Assembly: GCA_900315895.1 (NCBI GenBank) | Contig: ONAY01000003.1 | Location: forward strand, 1-64,000 | Direction: 5' to 3' | DNA: 64,000 nt | Source: an uncultured Eubacteriales bacterium | GTDB lineage: Bacteria > Bacillota > Clostridia > Peptostreptococcales > Anaerovoracaceae | Shown here: in pieces, positions 34,026 to 41,412 of the stretch | Position numbering within the stretch: position 1 is the first letter of the stretch | Layout: the number at the start of each line of letters is the position of its first letter | The notes under the pieces: model-generated | Told to the model about the DNA's origin: nothing | The model's input: the letters and a program-made list of their open reading frames with translations, nothing else | The model's database searches: none | Made by a program: the position numbers and the translations under genes

Positions 34026-34964
34026 ATGAAGATATACACGAAACTTGAAGAGATCACAGATATGCCGGATACTTCGGTGGCCCTCGGAAACTTCGACGGA
34101 GTCCACCTGGGACATCAGGCCATAATAAAGGAAGCGGTCAGCACAGCCAGGAAAAAGACATCCCAGGGCATACCTGAGAAGGCGGCGGTCTTTACCTTTT
34201 CCACCCATCCAAAGAATCTGATCCCCGGAGCAAAACATGTGGAGAACATTATCTATTCCGATGAGAAGAGGGATCTGATCGAGAGCCTGGGGGTGGACTA
34301 TTACATCGACATCGAGTTCAACGAGGACATAATGACCATGGAGCCCGCGGATTACGTCAGAGATCTTCTTTTGGAGAAGTTCCATGCCAAGGATGTGTTT
34401 TGCGGTTTCAACTACAGATTCGGATACAAGGCTGCGGGAAATACGGAGACGCTGAGGCGTCTGGGAGAGGAGTATGGATTCAGACTTCACGAGATGCCAC
34501 CGGTCATGGTGGACGGCGAGGTGGTGTCCAGCACCCTGATCCGGGAGCTCATAAGATCCGGAGACATCGATGAGTGTGACAGATTTCTTGGGAGAAACTA
34601 CACCATCGGGGGAGAAGTGGTGGTAGGAAATAAGCTGGGCAAGTCCATAGGCTTCCCCACATCCAATATCATGATCGACGAGACCATGGTAACGCCCCCG
34701 AATGGCGTTTACATCACTTATCTGGTATATAACGGAGTCAGATACCCTTCGATCACAAACGTGGGCGTAAAGCCCACTGTAGGGGCTTTCAGGAAGAACA
34801 TCGAGACCCATGTCTTCAACTTCGACAAAGAACTCTATGGAAAGCAGATCAGGGTGGAATTCATCAGGATGACGAGACCTGAAGCGAAATTTGCCTCCAT
34901 CGGAGAACTCTGCGAACAGATAACCAGAGACTGCGAAGAGGCTAAGAGATATCACGGGATATGA
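34026..34964 (+). CDS. ribF: bifunctional riboflavin kinase / FAD synthetase
   Basis: The 312-residue enzyme turns riboflavin into FMN and then FAD. The adenylyltransferase half (about 1-180) carries GNFDGVHLGHQ; the kinase half carries GKSIGFPTSNI and PPNGVYIT with a C-terminal helix ending at ...YHGI. It is intact. Its last 62 codons are repeated, with 74 percent amino acid identity by my count, in a fragment at 41194-41382 just upstream of rpsO. In Bacillota ribF normally lies directly before rpsO, so the 6 kb between is foreign to this junction. It closes the translation operon, 29 bases before the sigma-54 activator. Confidence 0.96.
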   Translation: MKIYTKLEEITDMPDTSVALGNFDGVHLGHQAIIKEAVSTARKKTSQGIPEKAAVFTFSTHPKNLIPGAKHVENIIYSDEKRDLIESLGVDYYIDIEFNEDIMTMEPADYVRDLLLEKFHAKDVFCGFNYRFGYKAAGNTETLRRLGEEYGFRLHEMPPVMVDGEVVSSTLIRELIRSGDIDECDRFLGRNYTIGGEVVVGNKLGKSIGFPTSNIMIDETMVTPPNGVYITYLVYNGVRYPSITNVGVKPTVGAFRKNIETHVFNFDKELYGKQIRVEFIRMTRPEAKFASIGELCEQITRDCEEAKRYHGI

Positions 34965-34992
34965 TGAAATCATATGTTTAAGGGGTAATGGA

Positions 34993-36900
34993 ATGGATGA
35001 TTATATCAGCACCATTGAAAACATTATAGAGAACAGCGGACGCGGATTGATCTATATAGATGAAAAGGGTGTGATCCGTGCATATTCCAGACTGGCCAGA
35101 AAGGTCACGGGAATAATCCTTGAGAGTGACAACGTACACGAGGGAGGCATTATTTCTGACGGCGATATCGTGATCATAGCGGATAATGACATCGGAAACG
35201 ACGATGACCTTAAACTTGAGGATCTGGAATACATAGGCATAAAGGATAAGGATATCAAAGAAGGCGATGCGATCCTTGCGGTAGGGGTTTATTCTTCATC
35301 CGGTCTGAGCAGCATCAATACCGGAAGAAAAAACGGACCGGAATATAAGTACGCGTCCAACTACAACCCTAACGGAGAGCTGGTCCTCAAGACTGTCAGA
35401 AACGGACAGGATATAGAAAGTCTGATAGATTTCGGCAGACAGACGATAAAGATCAGAGTTAACGATGAAGCCTACTATATGTCATACTTTGAAGCTGTTG
35501 GTCATATGGTGGTGCTGGACGGTAAGACAGGATCCGTGAAGTTTTTCCAGGCCAGGGGCTACGGATATCGCAGGGAAGAGATAGGAAAACTCCTGAGGGG
35601 TAAAGCCTTCCTGGCAAAACTCACAGAGGGAGGAACTGAGAAGGATCGCATTATCGGCACACCATATAAGGACAGCATTTTCGGGGAAGAATTCGTAGAA
35701 CTCATTGATAAAATGCTAAAAAGCAAAAAAGATGAGTTCTATGATGGTATTTTTGAGATATATAAGAGGAGATTTTACTGTAATATCATCAGAAGTAAGC
35801 AGTGGTGCAGATATGACGGAGTGTACATCACCATCATGGATGCATCCTCTCTCGCTTATCTGGCTGAAGGCCGTAATAAGCTAATAGAGCAGCTTGAAGA
35901 ATACCAGAGGACCAAGAGGCTGCCGCACATAAGAGAAAGCATCTTCGAGGATTCAGAGGGACTCAGCGGAAGTACTCCCGAGATCCTTGAGGTCAGGCAG
36001 ATGGCATTCAGGGCGTCCAAAGGCAGATTCGGTGTGCTTATCACCGGTGAAAGCGGTACAGGTAAAACAAGGTTAGCCAGAGAGATCCATGACCTGAGCG
36101 GAAGCTCCAGACCGTTTGTGGAAGTAAACTGCAGCGCTATTCCGCCTAACTTATTTGAAAGCGAGTTATTCGGATATGTTGGAGGCTCTTTCACGGGCGC
36201 GCTGGCAAAGGGCAAAGTCGGATATTTTGAAGAAGCCAATGGCGGAACGATCTTTTTGGATGAGATCGGAGAAATACCTTTAACTTCGCAGGTGAAACTT
36301 CTTCAGGTGTTACAAAGCAAAAAGATATATCGTGTAGGATCTGCTAAGCCCATAGACGTAAACGTGCGGGTAATTGCTGCGACCAATATGGATATAAAGA
36401 AGGCTGTAAATGAGGGCAGATTCCGTAAAGATCTGTACTACAGGCTCAATGTGTTCCCTATTTATATTCCGCCATTAAGAGCGCGTAAGGGAGATCTCAG
36501 AGAATTGACGGATCTGTTCCTTGAGGCTGCATGCAGGGAAAACGGAGTAGAGCTTAAAACGCTTTCCGAAAGTGCCTACAGAAAAATCATGGAATACTCA
36601 TGGCCGGGAAATGTCAGAGAACTTGAAAACGTCATTATGAGAGCGGTTGCGATGTGCGAGGCTCCGATGATCTATGAAGATTATCTGGCACTGGATGATT
36701 TTGAACCGTCTTTAAATGATGAGCCGGATGAACCGGCTGCCATGACGGACGGCGATCTGAAGCATACATTGGAGGAAACAGAGAAAAAATTGCTTTTACG
36801 TGCTATTGAAAGCAATGGCGGAAAGAATGCGGAAGCCATAAAAATGCTTGGGATCAGCAAAACTGCATTTTATGAAAAAATAAAAAAATACAATCTATAG
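34993..36900 (+). CDS. sigma-54 dependent transcriptional activator (enhancer-binding protein)
   Basis: The 635-residue protein has a 290-residue N-terminal sensory region (PAS-like start, IENSGRGLIYIDEKGVIRAYS; no phosphoreceiver), an AAA+ domain (335-565) with Walker A GESGTGKT (352-359), the sigma-54 contact loop GSFTGA (398-403; the usual GAFTGA with Ser), Walker B GGTIFLDE (417-424) and arginine-finger region GRFRKDLYYRL, then a Fis-type HTH (605-632). It should bind an upstream dyad and activate sigma-54 RNA polymerase at 37001. It is the first gene of the islet, with an AAGGGG ribosome site, and may be transcribed from the ribF operon, since no own promoter was found. rpoN is not in this window. 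Confidence 0.95.
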   Translation: MDDYISTIENIIENSGRGLIYIDEKGVIRAYSRLARKVTGIILESDNVHEGGIISDGDIVIIADNDIGNDDDLKLEDLEYIGIKDKDIKEGDAILAVGVYSSSGLSSINTGRKNGPEYKYASNYNPNGELVLKTVRNGQDIESLIDFGRQTIKIRVNDEAYYMSYFEAVGHMVVLDGKTGSVKFFQARGYGYRREEIGKLLRGKAFLAKLTEGGTEKDRIIGTPYKDSIFGEEFVELIDKMLKSKKDEFYDGIFEIYKRRFYCNIIRSKQWCRYDGVYITIMDASSLAYLAEGRNKLIEQLEEYQRTKRLPHIRESIFEDSEGLSGSTPEILEVRQMAFRASKGRFGVLITGESGTGKTRLAREIHDLSGSSRPFVEVNCSAIPPNLFESELFGYVGGSFTGALAKGKVGYFEEANGGTIFLDEIGEIPLTSQVKLLQVLQSKKIYRVGSAKPIDVNVRVIAATNMDIKKAVNEGRFRKDLYYRLNVFPIYIPPLRARKGDLRELTDLFLEAACRENGVELKTLSESAYRKIMEYSWPGNVRELENVIMRAVAMCEAPMIYEDYLALDDFEPSLNDEPDEPAAMTDGDLKHTLEETEKKLLLRAIESNGGKNAEAIKMLGISKTAFYEKIKKYNL

Positions 36901-36901
36901 T

Positions 36902-36938
36902 TTCCCGAATTAAGGAAAAGCTTTCCTGAAATCGGGAA
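36902..36938. promoter_or_regulatory. concentric dyad, candidate upstream activating sequence for the sigma-54 activator
   Basis: Outer arms TTCCCGA (36902-36908)/TCGGGAA (36932-36938) and inner arms AGGAAA (36913-36918)/TTTCCT (36922-36927) share one centre at 36920. This lies about 107 bases upstream of the predicted transcription start, in the usual enhancer range. No T-run follows, which argues against a terminator for the activator gene. Confidence 0.6.
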
Positions 36939-36966
36939 TATATTGCCGAATAATAAACGATGCAAA

Positions 36967-36997
36967 CACAAAACCCCCGGTTTTCAAGGGTTTTGTG
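36967..36997. repeat. perfect inverted repeat next to the sigma-54 promoter
   Basis: CACAAAACCC (36967-36976) and GGGTTTTGTG (36988-36997) form a perfect 10-bp stem with an 11-base loop, ending four bases before the -24 box. There is no T run after it, so a terminator role is weak; it may be a second regulator site or an mRNA-end structure of the activator gene. Confidence 0.55.
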
Positions 36998-37000
36998 ACT

Positions 37001-37016
37001 TGGCATCGTTTTTGCT
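37001..37016 (+). promoter_or_regulatory. sigma-54 (-24/-12) promoter TGGCATCGTTTTTGCT
   Basis: It matches the consensus TGGCAC-G-N4-TTGC(A/T) at 14 of 16 positions with the required 10-base distance between GG and GC. Transcription would start at about 37026. It stands directly behind the sigma-54 activator gene and directly ahead of the acetyltransferase-dapF-symporter-lysA genes. Confidence 0.85.
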
Positions 37017-37042
37017 TTTTAATGAGATAAAGGGGTTTGAAA

Positions 37043-37630
37043 ATGATAGACGGGCAGGTGATCGAAATGTTGAAGCACTGTGGAACGCTGCCGATCGAAA
37101 CGGAAAACCTTATACTCAAGCCTTTTGAATACTCGGATGCAGAGGCGATGCTCAGATACTGGGTCGCTGACGAGAATATCCAGTTCATGTATGCAGAACC
37201 GGTCTATAAAACACTTGATGAGGTACATGGCTTACTGAATAAGTATATCAGTTCATATGAGAGAAGTGACTATTACAGATGGGCCGTAACGGACAAGGAT
37301 GGACACGGGTGTATAGGCCAGATCGCCTTTTTCCTTGTGGACTCAAAAAATAATTTTGCTGAGATAGAATATTGCATAGGATCTGAATTCCAGCGCAAGG
37401 GCTATGCTACGGAAGCTACCGAAGCACTTATAGGATATGGCTTTGAGAAGATAGGTCTTCATAAAATACAAATATGCACAAAGACCATCAATTTACCATC
37501 AAAAAAGGTGATCGAAAAGTGCGGCTTCACATACGAAGGGACTCTAAGGGATTATTTTTACTATAATGGAGAGTATGTCGGAAGAATGTATTACTCCATG
37601 CTTAAAGATGAATATGAGGGCATAAGATAG
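37043..37630 (+). CDS. GNAT family N-acetyltransferase (RimJ/RimL-like)
   Basis: The 195-residue protein is an Acetyltransf_3-type GNAT: LPIETENLILKPFEYSDAEAM at the N-terminus, IGSEFQRKGYATEATEALIGYGFE with the acetyl-CoA pyrophosphate loop (Q/R-x-x-G-x-A/G), and INLPSKKVIEKCGFTYEGTLRDYF near the end. It transfers an acetyl group from acetyl-CoA to an amine; the substrate is unknown. ATG 37043 is preferred (AAAGGGG site 7 bases upstream) over TTG 37037. It is the first gene behind the sigma-54 promoter and 9 bases before dapF. Coding sequence is more AT-rich than the housekeeping genes around. Confidence 0.85.
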   Translation: MIDGQVIEMLKHCGTLPIETENLILKPFEYSDAEAMLRYWVADENIQFMYAEPVYKTLDEVHGLLNKYISSYERSDYYRWAVTDKDGHGCIGQIAFFLVDSKNNFAEIEYCIGSEFQRKGYATEATEALIGYGFEKIGLHKIQICTKTINLPSKKVIEKCGFTYEGTLRDYFYYNGEYVGRMYYSMLKDEYEGIR

Positions 37631-37639
37631 GAGATAATT

Positions 37640-38500
37640 ATGGAATTCTGGAAAATGAACGGCGCCGGAAATGACTTCATTATCATAAACAATTTTAAAG
37701 GTAATATTCCGGCTGAAAAGTTTCCGTATATAGCGGAGACCTTGTGTGAAAGGCATTTGTCTATCGGCGCAGATGGATTTATGGTGGTAGCTCAACCTTC
37801 TGAGGAATATAAAGATAAAGCAGATTTTAAGATGTTGTTTTTTAATTCGGATGGAAGTTTGGGAGAAATGTGCGGAAACGGCGCTCGCTGCATATGCCGA
37901 TACGGTTACGAGACTGGGCTGTCCGGTGAGACCCAGAGGATAGAAACCACTGCGGGCCTTGTGACCGGCAAAAGGATCTCTGAACGCACATACAAAATAA
38001 GGCTGAACGATCCAAGCGTAATCAAACTTGACGAGGAGATCAAAGTGGGGAACAAGAGTGTCCGCGCATCTTATGTGGAACTCGGTGATCCCGGCATACC
38101 CCACAGCGTTGTAGAGATAAAGGACTTGGAAAAGTATCCTTTGGATAAGCTCTTTGAGCTTGGAAGATCCATCAGGTTTTATGAAGGATACCCCAAAGGA
38201 GCAAACGTCAATTTCTATGAGTTGATAGGAGACGACCATATTATCGAGAAAACATATGAAAGAGGCGTGGAAGACTTTACCTACGCTTGCGGCACCGGGA
38301 CGGGGTCCGTTGTCGCAGCGCTCACGCTTAAAGGTCTGGTGTCGGGAAAGGACGTCAAAGTAGACGTGAGAGGCGGACGGCTGAACGTTGATATCGACAG
38401 GGACAAAAAAGACCCTGGTCATATAAATAATATTTATCTGAAAGGACCAACCAACATAGTAGCTAAAGGTGATGTCCTTGATGAAGAACTGGAATTATAA
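37640..38500 (+). CDS. dapF: diaminopimelate epimerase-like protein (DapF family)
   Basis: The 286-residue protein shows the two catalytic cysteines of DapF, Cys78 in EMCGNGARC and Cys217 in YACGTGTGS, GNDF near the N-terminus and YERGVEDFTYACGTG. It would interconvert LL- and meso-diaminopimelate by a two-base mechanism. One point is odd: the loop usually written GNPH, whose Asn contacts the substrate, appears here as LGDPGIPH, with Asp. By eye this suggests a possible shift in substrate. The gene sits in a sigma-54 controlled operon with a symporter and LysA-like enzyme, which is atypical of lysine biosynthesis. AGGAG ribosome site present. Confidence 0.82.
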   Translation: MEFWKMNGAGNDFIIINNFKGNIPAEKFPYIAETLCERHLSIGADGFMVVAQPSEEYKDKADFKMLFFNSDGSLGEMCGNGARCICRYGYETGLSGETQRIETTAGLVTGKRISERTYKIRLNDPSVIKLDEEIKVGNKSVRASYVELGDPGIPHSVVEIKDLEKYPLDKLFELGRSIRFYEGYPKGANVNFYELIGDDHIIEKTYERGVEDFTYACGTGTGSVVAALTLKGLVSGKDVKVDVRGGRLNVDIDRDKKDPGHINNIYLKGPTNIVAKGDVLDEELEL

Positions 38501-38516
38501 TTGGAGGTGAATTGTA

Positions 38517-39761
38517 ATGCAAAAGAATGAAGTAATGAAGAACTACCGCTTCCTTGCAATACTGATCGGAGCAATGATCCTTGGTTGTGTTGCAGGATGG
38601 GTAGCGCCGGGATTTGCGGCTGCCATCAGCCCTCTTGGAAAAGTCTTTATTAACATGATGTTTTGTATAGTAGTTCCTTTGGTATTTGCATCCATTGCGG
38701 GATCCATTGCCGGCATGAAGTCAAAAAAGAGAGCAGGTAAGATTCTCGGGACCACAGTTGCTACTTTCGTGATCACCGGCGCTATCGCTGCCGTCATCAT
38801 GTTCATACTTATGAAGATCTTCCCGCCCGTACTTACACCCTGGGAAAACATTGAAGCTGAAGAGATGGGTGAGTATGCAAGCACCAGCGACATGATCGTA
38901 AACTTCTTCACAGCAAATGACTTCGTAGGACTGCTTTCAAGAAGAGCTATGCTTCCTCTCATCGTTTTCTCACTGCTGTTCGGATTCGCAACTAACCTTG
39001 CAGAGAACGGAGAAGGCGTCGTTACGAATTTCCTTCACGGACTGACAGAAGTAATGCTGAAGTTCGTAAAGATCGTTACATACTATGCACCTATTGCATT
39101 CTTCGCTATTTTCGCAGGCCTGGTAGCTGACTACGGTTCAATGATCACCGAGTCCTATGGCCGTGCAATGCTCGTATACTATCCGCTTTGCTTCGTGTAT
39201 ATCTTCACAGCGTTCCCTCTGTTTGCATATTTCGGCGGCGGCAAGGGAGCTGTAAAGGTAATGTTCTCACACATCGCAAGACCTGCCGTAGTATCCCTCG
39301 GTACCTGCTCATCTGTTGCTACCATCCCTACCAATATGGAAGTAGCAGAAGAGACCGGTATCTCCAAGGACGTATCTGAGATGGTACTTCCTCTGGGCGC
39401 TACGATGCACATGGACGGATCCTGTTTCTCCTGCGTACTTAAGATTGCTTTCGTACTCGGAGTATTCGGTCAGCCTCTTTCATGGGGACAGCTCATTCCT
39501 ATCGTTCTCGTAGCTGTTCTTTCATCCGTAGGAATGTCCGGAGTTCCCGGAGGCGGATACATCGGAGAATACATCATCTGCTCCATCTTCTTCCCGACAC
39601 AGATCGAGCTTGCATTCCCTATCCTGGTAGCTATAGGAAACCTTGTTGATCCTCCGGCAACCATGATCAACTCCGCAGGAGACTACGTAGTATCCTACAT
39701 CGTATCACGTTACGTGGATGGCAAGGACTGGCTCCAAAAGAAGATTGCACAGAACGCTTAA
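38517..39761 (+). CDS. dicarboxylate/amino acid:cation symporter (DAACS family)
   Basis: The 414-residue membrane protein has about eight hydrophobic segments plus two re-entrant loops. Signature features: the serine-rich SLGTCSSVATIPTNMEVAEE, the HP2-like VGMSGVPGGGY and the substrate/cation site VAIGNLVDPPATMINSAGD, in place of the usual MxN...DR/T motif of GltP/DctA/SstT. It imports an amino acid or dicarboxylate with Na+ or H+. The exact substrate cannot be read. It is encoded between the epimerase and decarboxylase genes behind the sigma-54 promoter, suggesting it feeds them. GGAGG ribosome site 7 bases upstream of the ATG. Confidence 0.9.
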   Translation: MQKNEVMKNYRFLAILIGAMILGCVAGWVAPGFAAAISPLGKVFINMMFCIVVPLVFASIAGSIAGMKSKKRAGKILGTTVATFVITGAIAAVIMFILMKIFPPVLTPWENIEAEEMGEYASTSDMIVNFFTANDFVGLLSRRAMLPLIVFSLLFGFATNLAENGEGVVTNFLHGLTEVMLKFVKIVTYYAPIAFFAIFAGLVADYGSMITESYGRAMLVYYPLCFVYIFTAFPLFAYFGGGKGAVKVMFSHIARPAVVSLGTCSSVATIPTNMEVAEETGISKDVSEMVLPLGATMHMDGSCFSCVLKIAFVLGVFGQPLSWGQLIPIVLVAVLSSVGMSGVPGGGYIGEYIICSIFFPTQIELAFPILVAIGNLVDPPATMINSAGDYVVSYIVSRYVDGKDWLQKKIAQNA

Positions 39762-39818
39762 AACGATTAAAATATATACAAATAATGTATAATGATTATT
39801 TAAAAGGCAGGTGATTGG

Positions 39819-41120
39819 ATGATCTGTGATAATTTAAAAATATCAAAAGACGGACACCTCCTGTTCGCAGGACAGGACACCGTGGAACTTGCAAAAAAAT
39901 ACGGCACACCTGTGTATCTGATGGACGAAGATAAGATAAGGGAGAAGTGCAGAGCATATAAGAATGCTTTCATGAAATATTTTGATGAAAGGGCCATTCC
40001 TCTCTATGCGTCCAAGGCCAACAGTTTCAAACGTATCTATGAGATAATGACTGAAGAGGGCATGGGAATAGATGTCGTATCTTCGGGAGAGATATACACG
40101 GCATATAAGGCCGGCTTTGATCTGAAAAAAGCATATTTCCACTCCAACAATAAGACGGATGAGGATATTGCCTTTGCCATGGATCACGGCGTAGGATATT
40201 TCGTTGCCGATAATATAGAGGAAGTCAAGGCCGTGGAAGCGGAAGCAGGCAGAAGGGGTATAAAACAGAAAATGCTTCTCAGACTCACTCCCGGTATCGA
40301 CCCTCATACCTTTGAGGCTGACGCTACCGGTAAAGTGGACTCCAAATTCGGAACAGCCATAGAGACTGGTCAGGCCCTTGAGATAGTCAAAGAAACCCTG
40401 AAGAATTCTCACATTGAACTTAAAGGTTTCCACTGCCATGTGGGATCCCAGGTATTTACCGAGGATGTATTCGAAAGGGCTGCTGTGATCATGCTCGAGT
40501 TCGTGGCTGAATGCCGCGACAAGCTTGGCTACACGGCTGATGAGCTGGATCTCGGAGGCGGCTACGGCGTAAGATACGTTGATACAGATCCCTATCTGGA
40601 TATAGATACCAAGGTAAGACAGGTATCTGAAGCGGTCAAGACGACTTGCGAAAGACTGGGCTTGGAACTTCCTGAGATCCATATGGAACCCGGAAGATCC
40701 ATCGTAGCTGATGCCGGTATGGTCCTCTACACTGCGGGAACCGTCAAGAAGATCCCTGGATACAAGAATTACGTATCCGTTAACGGCGGTATGCCTGACA
40801 GCCCGAGATACGCTCTCTATAAGGCGGCATATACTCTTTATGTTGCCAATAAGATGAATGAGCCCTGTACTTTCAAGGCATCCGTAGTAGGACGCTGCTG
40901 TGAATCAGGGGACATCCTTCAGGAGGGCGTGATGCTTCCCGAGTCTGTGGGAAGAGGAGATACCATCGCCTTATGCACAGCCGGTGCATATCACTACTCC
41001 ATGGCATCCCGCTATAACAAACTTCCTATACCCGCTACCATCATGTTAAGGGGCGGAAATGAGAGCTACGTAGCGGTAAAAGGGGAGACCCTGGAAGACC
41101 TTGTAAGGAATGACGTATAA
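39819..41120 (+). CDS. lysA: diaminopimelate decarboxylase-like fold III PLP enzyme (LysA family)
   Basis: The 433-residue alanine-racemase-fold decarboxylase binds PLP by Lys66 (LYASKANS), has the phosphate loop at DLGGGYGV and EPGRSIVADAG, HCHVGSQ, and the catalytic CCESGD (Cys361, Glu362). Enzymes of this family decarboxylate the D-centre of meso-diaminopimelate to lysine, and relatives act on other amino acids. No lysine riboswitch is present. A possible TATAAT (39788-39793) offers a second promoter, but it may also lie on the sigma-54 transcript. It is followed by a strong terminator. An AGGCAGGTGATTGG region precedes the ATG. Confidence 0.88.
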   Translation: MICDNLKISKDGHLLFAGQDTVELAKKYGTPVYLMDEDKIREKCRAYKNAFMKYFDERAIPLYASKANSFKRIYEIMTEEGMGIDVVSSGEIYTAYKAGFDLKKAYFHSNNKTDEDIAFAMDHGVGYFVADNIEEVKAVEAEAGRRGIKQKMLLRLTPGIDPHTFEADATGKVDSKFGTAIETGQALEIVKETLKNSHIELKGFHCHVGSQVFTEDVFERAAVIMLEFVAECRDKLGYTADELDLGGGYGVRYVDTDPYLDIDTKVRQVSEAVKTTCERLGLELPEIHMEPGRSIVADAGMVLYTAGTVKKIPGYKNYVSVNGGMPDSPRYALYKAAYTLYVANKMNEPCTFKASVVGRCCESGDILQEGVMLPESVGRGDTIALCTAGAYHYSMASRYNKLPIPATIMLRGGNESYVAVKGETLEDLVRNDV

Positions 41121-41145
41121 TGATCTTACTCCTTTCATAAACCTG

Positions 41146-41177
41146 ATGCCCGCAGACTGGTGTCTGCGGGCATTTTT
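41146..41177 (+). terminator. strong terminator of the sigma-54 operon
   Basis: ATGCCCGCAGAC (41146-41157) and GTCTGCGGGCAT (41162-41173) form a perfect 12-bp stem with a TGGT loop, followed by TTTTT. It is the strongest hairpin in the window and marks the right functional end of the islet. Confidence 0.95.
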
Positions 41178-41193
41178 CTCATTTAAAATGTTC

Positions 41194-41382
41194 ACAGTGG
41201 GAGTTTTTAAGAAGAATATCGAGACCCATGTCTTCAACTTCGACAAGGAGCTCTACGGCAAGTTCATCAAGATCGAGTTCATCCGTATGACCCGTCCCGA
41301 GGCCAAGTTCGCAAGCATCGAGGATCTCAAGGCCCAGATAGCCAAGGACTGCCATGACGCCAGAGCCTTCCACGGGATATGA
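41194..41382 (+). pseudogene. ribF: ribF 3'-end fragment (62 codons), remnant of a second or ancestral ribF
   Basis: From TVGVFKKN to HGI-stop the sequence encodes the C-terminal end of riboflavin kinase. It shares 46 of 62 residues with the end of the intact ribF (34779-34964) and one exact run of 29 bases. There are no frameshifts, and the homology breaks sharply at ACAGTGGG, 17 bases after the operon terminator. The N-terminal 250 residues are absent, so it cannot be a working enzyme. It lies just upstream of rpsO, where ribF normally ends in this gene order, making it the likely scar of the islet's arrival. Confidence 0.9.
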
Positions 41383-41412
41383 TGGATCGAGCAGGTTACC
41401 GCAAAAAATCCA

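What the first reader, a model, noticed from the sequence alone, without database searches (positions are those of the whole stretch)
34993..41120. Sigma-54-controlled islet: GNAT, DapF-like epimerase, DAACS symporter and LysA-like decarboxylase
The sequence shows a sigma-54 activator gene followed by a correctly spaced -24/-12 promoter and then acetyltransferase, DapF-family, DAACS and LysA-family genes ending at a strong terminator. Established knowledge: dapF and lysA normally belong to lysine/peptidoglycan synthesis and are controlled by lysine riboswitches or run constitutively, while sigma-54 activators in Clostridia mostly control amino acid catabolism. Inference: the operon imports an amino acid, moves its stereocentre with the epimerase and decarboxylates the D-centre, a pathway I do not know as described. 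Diaminopimelate or other cell-wall amino acid salvage is one option; a racemase plus D-specific decarboxylase route for another amino acid is another. The DapF GDPGIPH loop hints at changed substrate.
Basis: partly seen in the sequence, partly recalled or inferred. Interest (0 to 1): 0.82.

Follow-up and report, generated by a model that had tools for sequence, protein, structure and literature searches.

The report
Sigma-54 operon for eating diaminopimelate
A bacterium with a close relative from a goat's stomach has no match, in the 87% of its genome that is known, to two genes needed to make diaminopimelate, an amino acid of bacterial cell walls, yet it carries a gene set behind a sigma-54 activator gene that is predicted to import this amino acid and turn it into lysine, which the cell would likely ferment.

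Summary
In detail: sigma-54 activator, -24/-12 promoter, GNAT, DapF, DAACS symporter, LysA, terminator. New evidence makes it a salvage or catabolic operon rather than lysine biosynthesis. The genome (86.9% complete) holds one dapF and one lysA but no match to dapA or dapB; dapB is also unmatched in the four genus mates searched, and dapA reaches cut-off in none of the five. The genome carries rpoN and a lysine-fermentation cluster (kdd, kamA-kamE) behind its own sigma-54 activator and promoter match. In 18 of 30 relatives a sigma-54 match lies within 400 bases of the DapF operon, about 0.02 expected each; in seven, LD-carboxypeptidase (LdcA) and Gate-type membrane genes share that operon. Committed reading: DAACS likely imports diaminopimelate, DapF balances its isomers, LysA makes lysine, the kam pathway ferments it. 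Substrate, transport and expression are untested. The GDPGIPH loop is a clade signature, not a special change. The islet is a recent DNA mosaic of two related species. New variant of a known kind.

The parts
34993..36900 (+). sigma-54 enhancer-binding activator, 635 aa: predicted PAS fold with an inserted stretch, AAA+ domain with GSFTGA loop, Fis-type HTH; starts 28 bases behind ribF
   Evidence: model; fold comparison
36902..36917 (+). first tandem dyad TTCCCGAATTAAGGAA, candidate activator site
36923..36938 (+). second tandem dyad TTCCTGAAATCGGGAA, candidate activator site
36967..36997 (+). hairpin between activator gene and promoter (CACAAAACC...GGGTTTTGTG); in G191, G072 and G069 a terminator-like hairpin sits here (read by eye)
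37001..37016 (+). sigma-54 -24/-12 promoter match TGGCATCGTTTTTGCT
   Evidence: same 16 bases in G148, G102, G177, G019
37043..37630 (+). GNAT acetyltransferase, accessory: absent between promoter and dapF in G177 and G019
37640..38500 (+). DapF (clade A), both catalytic Cys kept
38517..39761 (+). DAACS/SDF symporter; an Arg of aspartate transporters is Ala here, the neighbouring Asp is kept
39819..41120 (+). LysA, diaminopimelate decarboxylase family
41145..41174 (+). intrinsic terminator-like hairpin
41193..41384 (+). second copy of the ribF 3' end, 72% identical to 34775-34966

Best explanation
The operon lies behind a sigma-54 activator gene and a -24/-12 promoter match, and is predicted to import diaminopimelate shed from other bacteria's cell walls and turn it into lysine, which likely feeds the lysine-fermentation genes found elsewhere in the same genome. 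Steps: the activator (predicted PAS-type sensor) would bind the two dyads and start transcription when its ligand, perhaps DAP or lysine, is present; DAACS would carry DAP in; DapF would interconvert LL- and meso-DAP so that both forms can be used; LysA would decarboxylate meso-DAP to L-lysine; KamA and the later kam enzymes would ferment it. Shown by sequence: gene order, promoter match, families over curated cut-offs, no match to dapA or dapB, presence of the kam cluster and rpoN. Inferred: substrate, direction, transport, inducer, and use for energy.
For: One dapF, one lysA; no match to dapA or dapB in a genome 86.9% complete; dapB unmatched in 5 of 5 genus members, 85-94% complete; dapA over cut-off in 0 of 5. 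kamA over cut-off in 14 of 14 genomes tested, own included; own cluster kdd-kamA-kamB-kamC-kamD-kamE-CoA transferase behind a sigma-54 activator, with a site TGGCATACAATTTGC between them. rpoN over cut-off. Sigma-54 match upstream of the DapF operon in 18 of 30 relatives, about 0.02 expected each (with ORF-based starts finds 17, losing G102 only because the script ran past the activator gene). In 7 of 30 an S66 LD-carboxypeptidase precedes DapF in the same operon (families). Genomes with clade-A DapF mostly lack a strong dapB hit (34 of 49), canonical-only ones rarely (12 of 76). LysA keeps the family's substrate motifs. Precedent for cystine-type carriers taking DAP: DAACS cystine importers TcyP/YdjN and an E. 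coli cystine uptake shared with DAP (PMC4383340, passages); B. subtilis TcyABC listed as cystine and diaminopimelate uptake (PMC11466899, one passage).
Against: No enzyme, transport or expression data. meso-DAP, the common wall form, needs no epimerase to become lysine, so DapF is only explained by use of LL-DAP or by another substrate. The own genome has no match to the LD-carboxypeptidase of its relatives, so it would depend on free DAP. In G191 and G163 a gene related to D-cysteine desulfhydrase and D-cysteate sulfo-lyase (below those curated cut-offs) stands in the cluster, which does not fit DAP. DAACS is in only 9 of the 30 clusters. Twelve of 30 relatives show no sigma-54 match, one of them (G187) without upstream sequence, and 15 of 49 clade-A genomes have a strong dapB hit. 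Later kam-pathway genes such as kce and kal were not looked for.
Confidence: 0.62

Rival explanations
1. The operon salvages DAP, but for building: the lysine (or DAP) is used for protein or for the cell's own wall rather than fermented.
For: dapA and dapB are not found, so no own route to DAP or DAP-derived lysine is visible. In three relatives without a strong dapB hit (G128, G172, G191) one MurE carries the DNPR motif (recalled as the DAP-type motif), so they may need DAP for their wall.
Against: Sigma-54 regulons of Clostridiales hold mostly fermentation and amino acid catabolism genes (PMC6615313, abstract and Table 1), and the same genome has a kam cluster behind its own sigma-54 activator. 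The MurE of genus mates G148, G177 and G102 lack DNPR; no MurE over cut-off was found in G000 or G019.
Confidence: 0.2
2. DapF and LysA act here on another amino acid, such as lysine, ornithine or a sulphur analogue (cystathionine, lanthionine): a racemase plus D-specific decarboxylase route.
For: The DapF position that is Asn in E. coli is Ile here; a D-cysteine desulfhydrase-related gene stands in the cluster of G191 and G163; alanine-racemase-type genes stand near in others.
Against: Both proteins pass the curated equivalog cut-offs for DapF and LysA and fall far below those for histidine racemase CntK (21 against 300 bits) and D-ornithine/lysine decarboxylase DokD (167.4 against 700). LysA keeps EPGR, the Arg and Tyr of PRYALY and CESGD. 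Clade-A DapF is the only DapF matched in 14 of the 15 clade-A genomes with a strong dapB hit, and in G007 it lies about 2.1 kb from dapB on the same contig and strand, where a DAP role is expected.
Confidence: 0.14
3. Ordinary lysine biosynthesis whose other genes lie in the unsequenced part of the genome.
For: The genome is a 56-contig assembly, 86.9% complete. Three genus mates have a weak dapA relative, 89-96 bits against a cut-off of 206.
Against: dapB is also unmatched in four genus mates of 85-94% completeness; dapA over cut-off in 0 of 5; the controls rang in 11 (dapB) and 14 (dapA) of 14 named genomes.
Confidence: 0.04

Closest known systems
Sigma-54 amino acid catabolic regulons of Clostridiales (PrdR, OrdR, LeuR, CdsR and others; PMC6615313, abstract and sections 5 and 7 with Table 1 read)
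   Same: activator gene beside its target operon, -24/-12 promoter, transporter and catabolic enzymes, PAS-type sensor
   Different: Table 1 lists no dapF, lysA, DAP or lysine-fermentation target; the words diaminopimelate and lysine do not occur in its main text. Activators were not compared by sequence
KamR-controlled kam locus of Bacillus thuringiensis (PMC4428206, passages)
   Same: sigma-54 and an activator control lysine 2,3-aminomutase, as the own kam cluster appears to be
   Different: no DapF-DAACS-LysA operon described in the passages seen; the paper lists a lysA (HD73_1649) among sigma-54 affected genes with a poor promoter match and calls it biosynthesis
DapF and LysA of the DAP/lysine pathway (TIGR00652, TIGR01048)
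   Same: sequence family, catalytic and most substrate positions
   Different: no dapA or dapB found; sigma-54 promoter match; transporter in the operon; DapF belongs to a separate clade with a three-residue loop insertion
Cystine symporters TcyP/YdjN (DAACS family; PMC4383340, passages)
   Same: transporter family; cystine is a structural analogue of DAP
   Different: substrate of the window's symporter untested; direct sequence comparison with TcyP not made

Membership tests
DapF (diaminopimelate epimerase, TIGR00652) | score over curated cut-off | tested here: met
   215 against 114.65 bits
DapF (diaminopimelate epimerase, TIGR00652) | two catalytic cysteines in CGNG and CGTG motifs | tested here: met
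   MCGNGAR and ACGTGTG
DapF (diaminopimelate epimerase, TIGR00652) | Asn in the GNPH loop that binds the far end of DAP (role recalled) | tested here: inconclusive
   Ile here; but Val or Thr in 8 of 11 intact canonical rows too, so the residue does not define the family
DapF (diaminopimelate epimerase, TIGR00652) | epimerises LL- and meso-DAP | not testable with these tools
   enzyme assay needed
LysA (diaminopimelate decarboxylase, TIGR01048) | score over curated cut-off | tested here: met
   394.7 against 297.9 bits
LysA (diaminopimelate decarboxylase, TIGR01048) | PLP lysine motif YASKA, EPGR, Arg and Tyr for the far carboxylate, CESGD | tested here: met
   aligned with 5x7m and 1hkv; window row; roles recalled
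D-ornithine/D-lysine decarboxylase DokD (NF052544) | score over curated cut-off | tested here: not met
   167.4 against 700 bits
Histidine racemase CntK (NF033599) | score over curated cut-off | tested here: not met
   21 against 300 bits
Sigma-54 enhancer-binding activator | AAA+ domain with GAFTGA-type loop and Fis-type HTH | tested here: met
   PF00158, PF25601, PF02954; loop GSFTGA, a variant that PMC6615313 section 5 says still allows activation
PrdR (NF041552) | score over curated cut-off | tested here: not met
   368.7 against 795 bits, C-terminal part only
Glutamate/aspartate or C4-dicarboxylate DAACS | Arg three residues behind the TM8 Asp that binds the side-chain carboxylate (role recalled) | tested here: not met
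   DPPATM against DMARTT of an aspartate transporter; Ala in all 11 symporters aligned. DctA, SstT and GltP models also far below cut-off
DAP route of lysine biosynthesis | dapA and dapB present | tested here: not met
   no match in own genome; dapB 0 of 5, dapA over cut-off 0 of 5 in the genus; genomes incomplete
Lysine fermentation (kam) pathway in the same cell | kamA, kdd, kamB-kamE over curated cut-offs | tested here: met
   kce and kal not looked for

The most novel reading that the evidence does not exclude
This is a dedicated sigma-54 regulon for eating other bacteria's cell walls: gut Anaerovoracaceae sense, import and ferment diaminopimelate through lysine. It would include a DAP-specific DAACS symporter and a DAP-sensing activator, and in sister genera an arm of LD-carboxypeptidase, Gate-type transporters, M20 peptidase and alanine racemase that takes apart whole stem peptides. 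Rumen bacteria would then consume the very compound used as a marker of bacterial matter.
Probability: 0.45. Interest if true: 0.75.

Novelty: new variant of a known kind. Interest (0 to 1): 0.6.

Why it matters
If true, two enzymes that are usually annotated as lysine biosynthesis serve here to break down an amino acid taken from other bacteria's walls. It gives a concrete fate for cell-wall DAP in the gut, a testable DAP importer and sensor, and a warning that dapF and lysA in gut genomes do not prove that a cell makes its own lysine. DAP is used as a bacterial marker in rumen work (PMC4659874, passage), so bacteria that consume it matter for that method.

Tried and rejected

Literature: the listings showed me no paper on a sigma-54 DAP operon or on DAP fermentation; I judged by titles and starts of abstracts and opened passages of eight papers (PMC6615313 sections, PMC11382707, PMC4659874, PMC12316311, PMC4428206, PMC3149608, PMC4383340, PMC10213525) and later PMC11466899. 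One search (six DAP degradation, utilization, fermentation and salvage phrases) returned zero papers. Most subscription journals are not held, so older rumen work on DAP breakdown, which I recall, could not be checked.

Weak points of my counts. In 'strong dapB' is my own E-value line (below 1e-33), giving 115 genomes against 118 over the curated cut-off, so up to three of the 13 clade-A genomes with weak dapB hits may be over cut-off. Genomes are related, so the Fisher value of 1.5e-9 is only a guide. Clade A (49 of 125 genomes) means at least 47% identity to the window's DapF; three of them (G110, G034, G181) have lower scores, two in pieces. The operon starts were partly my estimates; one search repeated the count from ORFs (17 of 30, plus G102 by hand; G187 has no upstream sequence; in G069 the site lies 33 bases inside the longest reading of the DapF frame, and in G028 at base 1 of the longest GateA frame). 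The expected 0.02 is taken from the same loci, hits included. In one search I labelled G094can as dapB-bearing by mistake (its dapB hit is weak, 2.5e-28); only the split between the two DapF clades is used from that tree, and G130can, a degenerate-looking copy without CGNG, was left out of it.
Full report
WHAT IS THERE. The -24/-12 site TGGCATCGTTTTTGCT (37001-37016) is the only exact match to TGGCAYNNNNNTTGCW in the window, with 0.09 expected by chance. Upstream lie two tandem dyads of the form TTCC-N8-GGAA (36902-36917 and 36923-36938); the pattern with one mismatch gives six strand-wise matches in the window, four of them these two dyads on both strands, with 0.41 expected. Similar dyads stand at the same place in G148 and G102 and in weaker form in G177; in G019 only the first is recognisable (read by eye). 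The activator gene starts 28 bases behind ribF, so it may ride on the ribF transcript (inference).

DOES THE GENOME MAKE DAP? The window is contig C33 of a 1.74 Mb, 56-contig genome, 86.9% complete. It has one DapF (two pieces of one gene) and one LysA. There is no match to dapA TIGR00674 or dapB TIGR00036, while the controls rang in 14 and 11 of 14 named genomes. dapB is also unmatched in the four genus mates G019, G102, G148 and G177 (85-94% complete). dapA reached the cut-off in 0 of these 5 genomes; three have a weak relative, 89-96 bits against a cut-off of 206. So a route to DAP from aspartate is not visible in this genus, as far as the assemblies go.

WHERE WOULD THE LYSINE GO? Lysine 2,3-aminomutase (TIGR03820) is over cut-off in 14 of 14 genomes tested, the own one included. 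The own gene sits in a cluster with kdd, kamB, kamC, kamD, kamE and a CoA transferase, over curated cut-offs. In front stands another sigma-54 activator, and between it and kdd a site TGGCATACAATTTGC. rpoN is present, 472.5 bits. kce and kal were not looked for. Lysine fermentation under sigma-54 is thus the likely downstream pathway. Sigma-54 control of kamA is known from Bacillus thuringiensis (PMC4428206, passages), and lysine 2,3-aminomutase is listed among genes predominantly sigma-54 regulated in Bacilli (PMC12316311, passage).

CONSERVATION. A search of 197 genomes of the family, drawn evenly from a larger group, found DapF matches in 125. A named member of the family is Bacilliculturomica massiliensis (protein P0046 on a contig of 862,596 bases, the length of the G008 contig), which NCBI places in Anaerovoracaceae. 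Records with the contig lengths of the four genus mates are titled RUG12385 and RUG12614 (RUG recalled as rumen uncultured genome), a goat abomasum assembly and a reindeer assembly. I fetched the surroundings of 30 of the 48 other genomes with a clade-A DapF. Of these 30, 18 have LysA and 9 a DAACS in the cluster, and 16 a related activator in the fetched stretch (recounted). In 18 of 30 a sigma-54 match lies within 400 bases upstream of the operon, against 0.02 expected per region; for G008 the match is 362 bases away, and 12 have none, among them G163, G095, G174, G142 and G046. In 7 of 30 (G185, G043, G116, G139, G088, G028, G008) one or two Gate-type membrane genes (PF07670) and an S66 LD-carboxypeptidase precede DapF in the same operon, each behind one of those sigma-54 matches. 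Pairs of M20 peptidase and alanine-racemase-type genes stand near in several (L041, L052, L053, L066, L071, L072), some with a sigma-54 match close by. These are steps one would need to take apart a wall stem peptide (inference). The own genome and G019, however, have no match to that LD-carboxypeptidase; nor have G191 and G128.

CO-OCCURRENCE. Genomes with a clade-A DapF have a strong dapB hit in 15 of 49 cases; genomes with only canonical DapF in 64 of 76 (caveats in Tried and rejected). So clade A is mostly, not always, found where dapB is not. In the 15 that do have dapB, clade A is the only DapF matched except in G130, which also has a degenerate copy. In G007 the clade-A gene lies about 2.1 kb from dapB on the same contig and strand. 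This suggests that clade A can act on DAP.

THE ENZYMES. DapF keeps the residues around both catalytic cysteines, the Asn of FNSDG and ANVNF, and the ERG motif. A clear departure from E. coli is Ile for the Asn of GNPH, with a three-residue insertion. Of the 51 rows, 39 are clade A (the window's included) and all 39 carry a G-x-P-x-x-PH loop, also in dapB-bearing genomes. Of 12 canonical rows, 11 read GNPH (3), GVPH (6) or GTVH (2), and one (G130can) is degenerate. The tree separates the clades (support 100/98), with G195 on a long branch beside clade A. The loop is therefore no evidence of a special substrate here. LysA keeps the motifs that bind the far carboxylate of DAP (roles recalled). 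DAACS reads DPPATM where an aspartate transporter has DMARTT, so the Arg that holds an acidic side chain is missing and the Asp for the amino group is kept (roles recalled). That speaks against glutamate, aspartate or C4-dicarboxylates and allows a neutral or zwitterionic substrate such as DAP. Precedents: DAACS cystine importers and an E. coli cystine system shared with DAP (PMC4383340, passages); the ABC importer TcyABC of B. subtilis is listed for cystine and DAP (PMC11466899, one passage).

HISTORY. DNA identity along the window is a mosaic, in 250-base bins. From 35000 to about 38700 (activator, GNAT, DapF) it is 96-100% identical to G148; from 38750 to 41000 (DAACS, LysA) it is 90-98% identical to G177; truB and ribF before it are 71-87% identical to G019 and 54-85% to G148. 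The operon thus appears to have been exchanged recently between species of the genus. A second ribF 3' end behind the islet, not found in the four genus loci compared (two of which do not reach far beyond lysA), would fit such an exchange.

LIMITS. Everything about substrate, transport direction, inducer and energy use is inference from families, gene absence and context. DapF is the least explained part: wall meso-DAP needs no epimerase. Use of LL-DAP from Actinobacteria walls is a possible reason (LL-DAP in Cutibacterium and Streptomyces is listed in PMC11382707, passages).

Noticed in passing
window 41193-41384: A second, diverged ribF 3' end (72% DNA identity) lies behind the islet and in front of rpsO; not found in the four genus mates' loci compared.
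   Followed up: partly
window 35000-41000: Sharp DNA identity steps: 96-100% to G148 over activator-GNAT-DapF, then 90-98% to G177 over DAACS-LysA, lower outside: recent exchange between species.
   Followed up: yes
L169:5300-7351: The sigma-54 activator of the own kam cluster has an N-terminal part that matches the 3,5-diaminohexanoate dehydrogenase model (129.8 bits, cut-off 200): perhaps an enzyme-like sensor domain.
   Followed up: no
window 34993-35900: The activator's predicted PAS domain seems interrupted by a long inserted stretch with many invariant residues and no Pfam match.
   Followed up: partly
G000 and G019 whole genomes: No MurE over cut-off in these two genomes; genus mates G148, G177 and G102 have a MurE without the DNPR motif.
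   Followed up: partly
L103/L114, L105/L116, L107/L115: G128 and G191 each have two MurE-type genes over cut-off and G172 three; one in each carries DNPR, and none of the three genomes has a strong dapB hit (G128b's row was aligned, G172's third was not extracted).
   Followed up: no
L048, L068: G043 and G116 carry two Gate-Gate-LdcA trios in one stretch, each trio behind a sigma-54 match.
   Followed up: no
L038, L039, L084, L093: A gene related to D-cysteine desulfhydrase (PALP) stands beside DapF-LysA in several genomes; its role there is unexplained.
   Followed up: no
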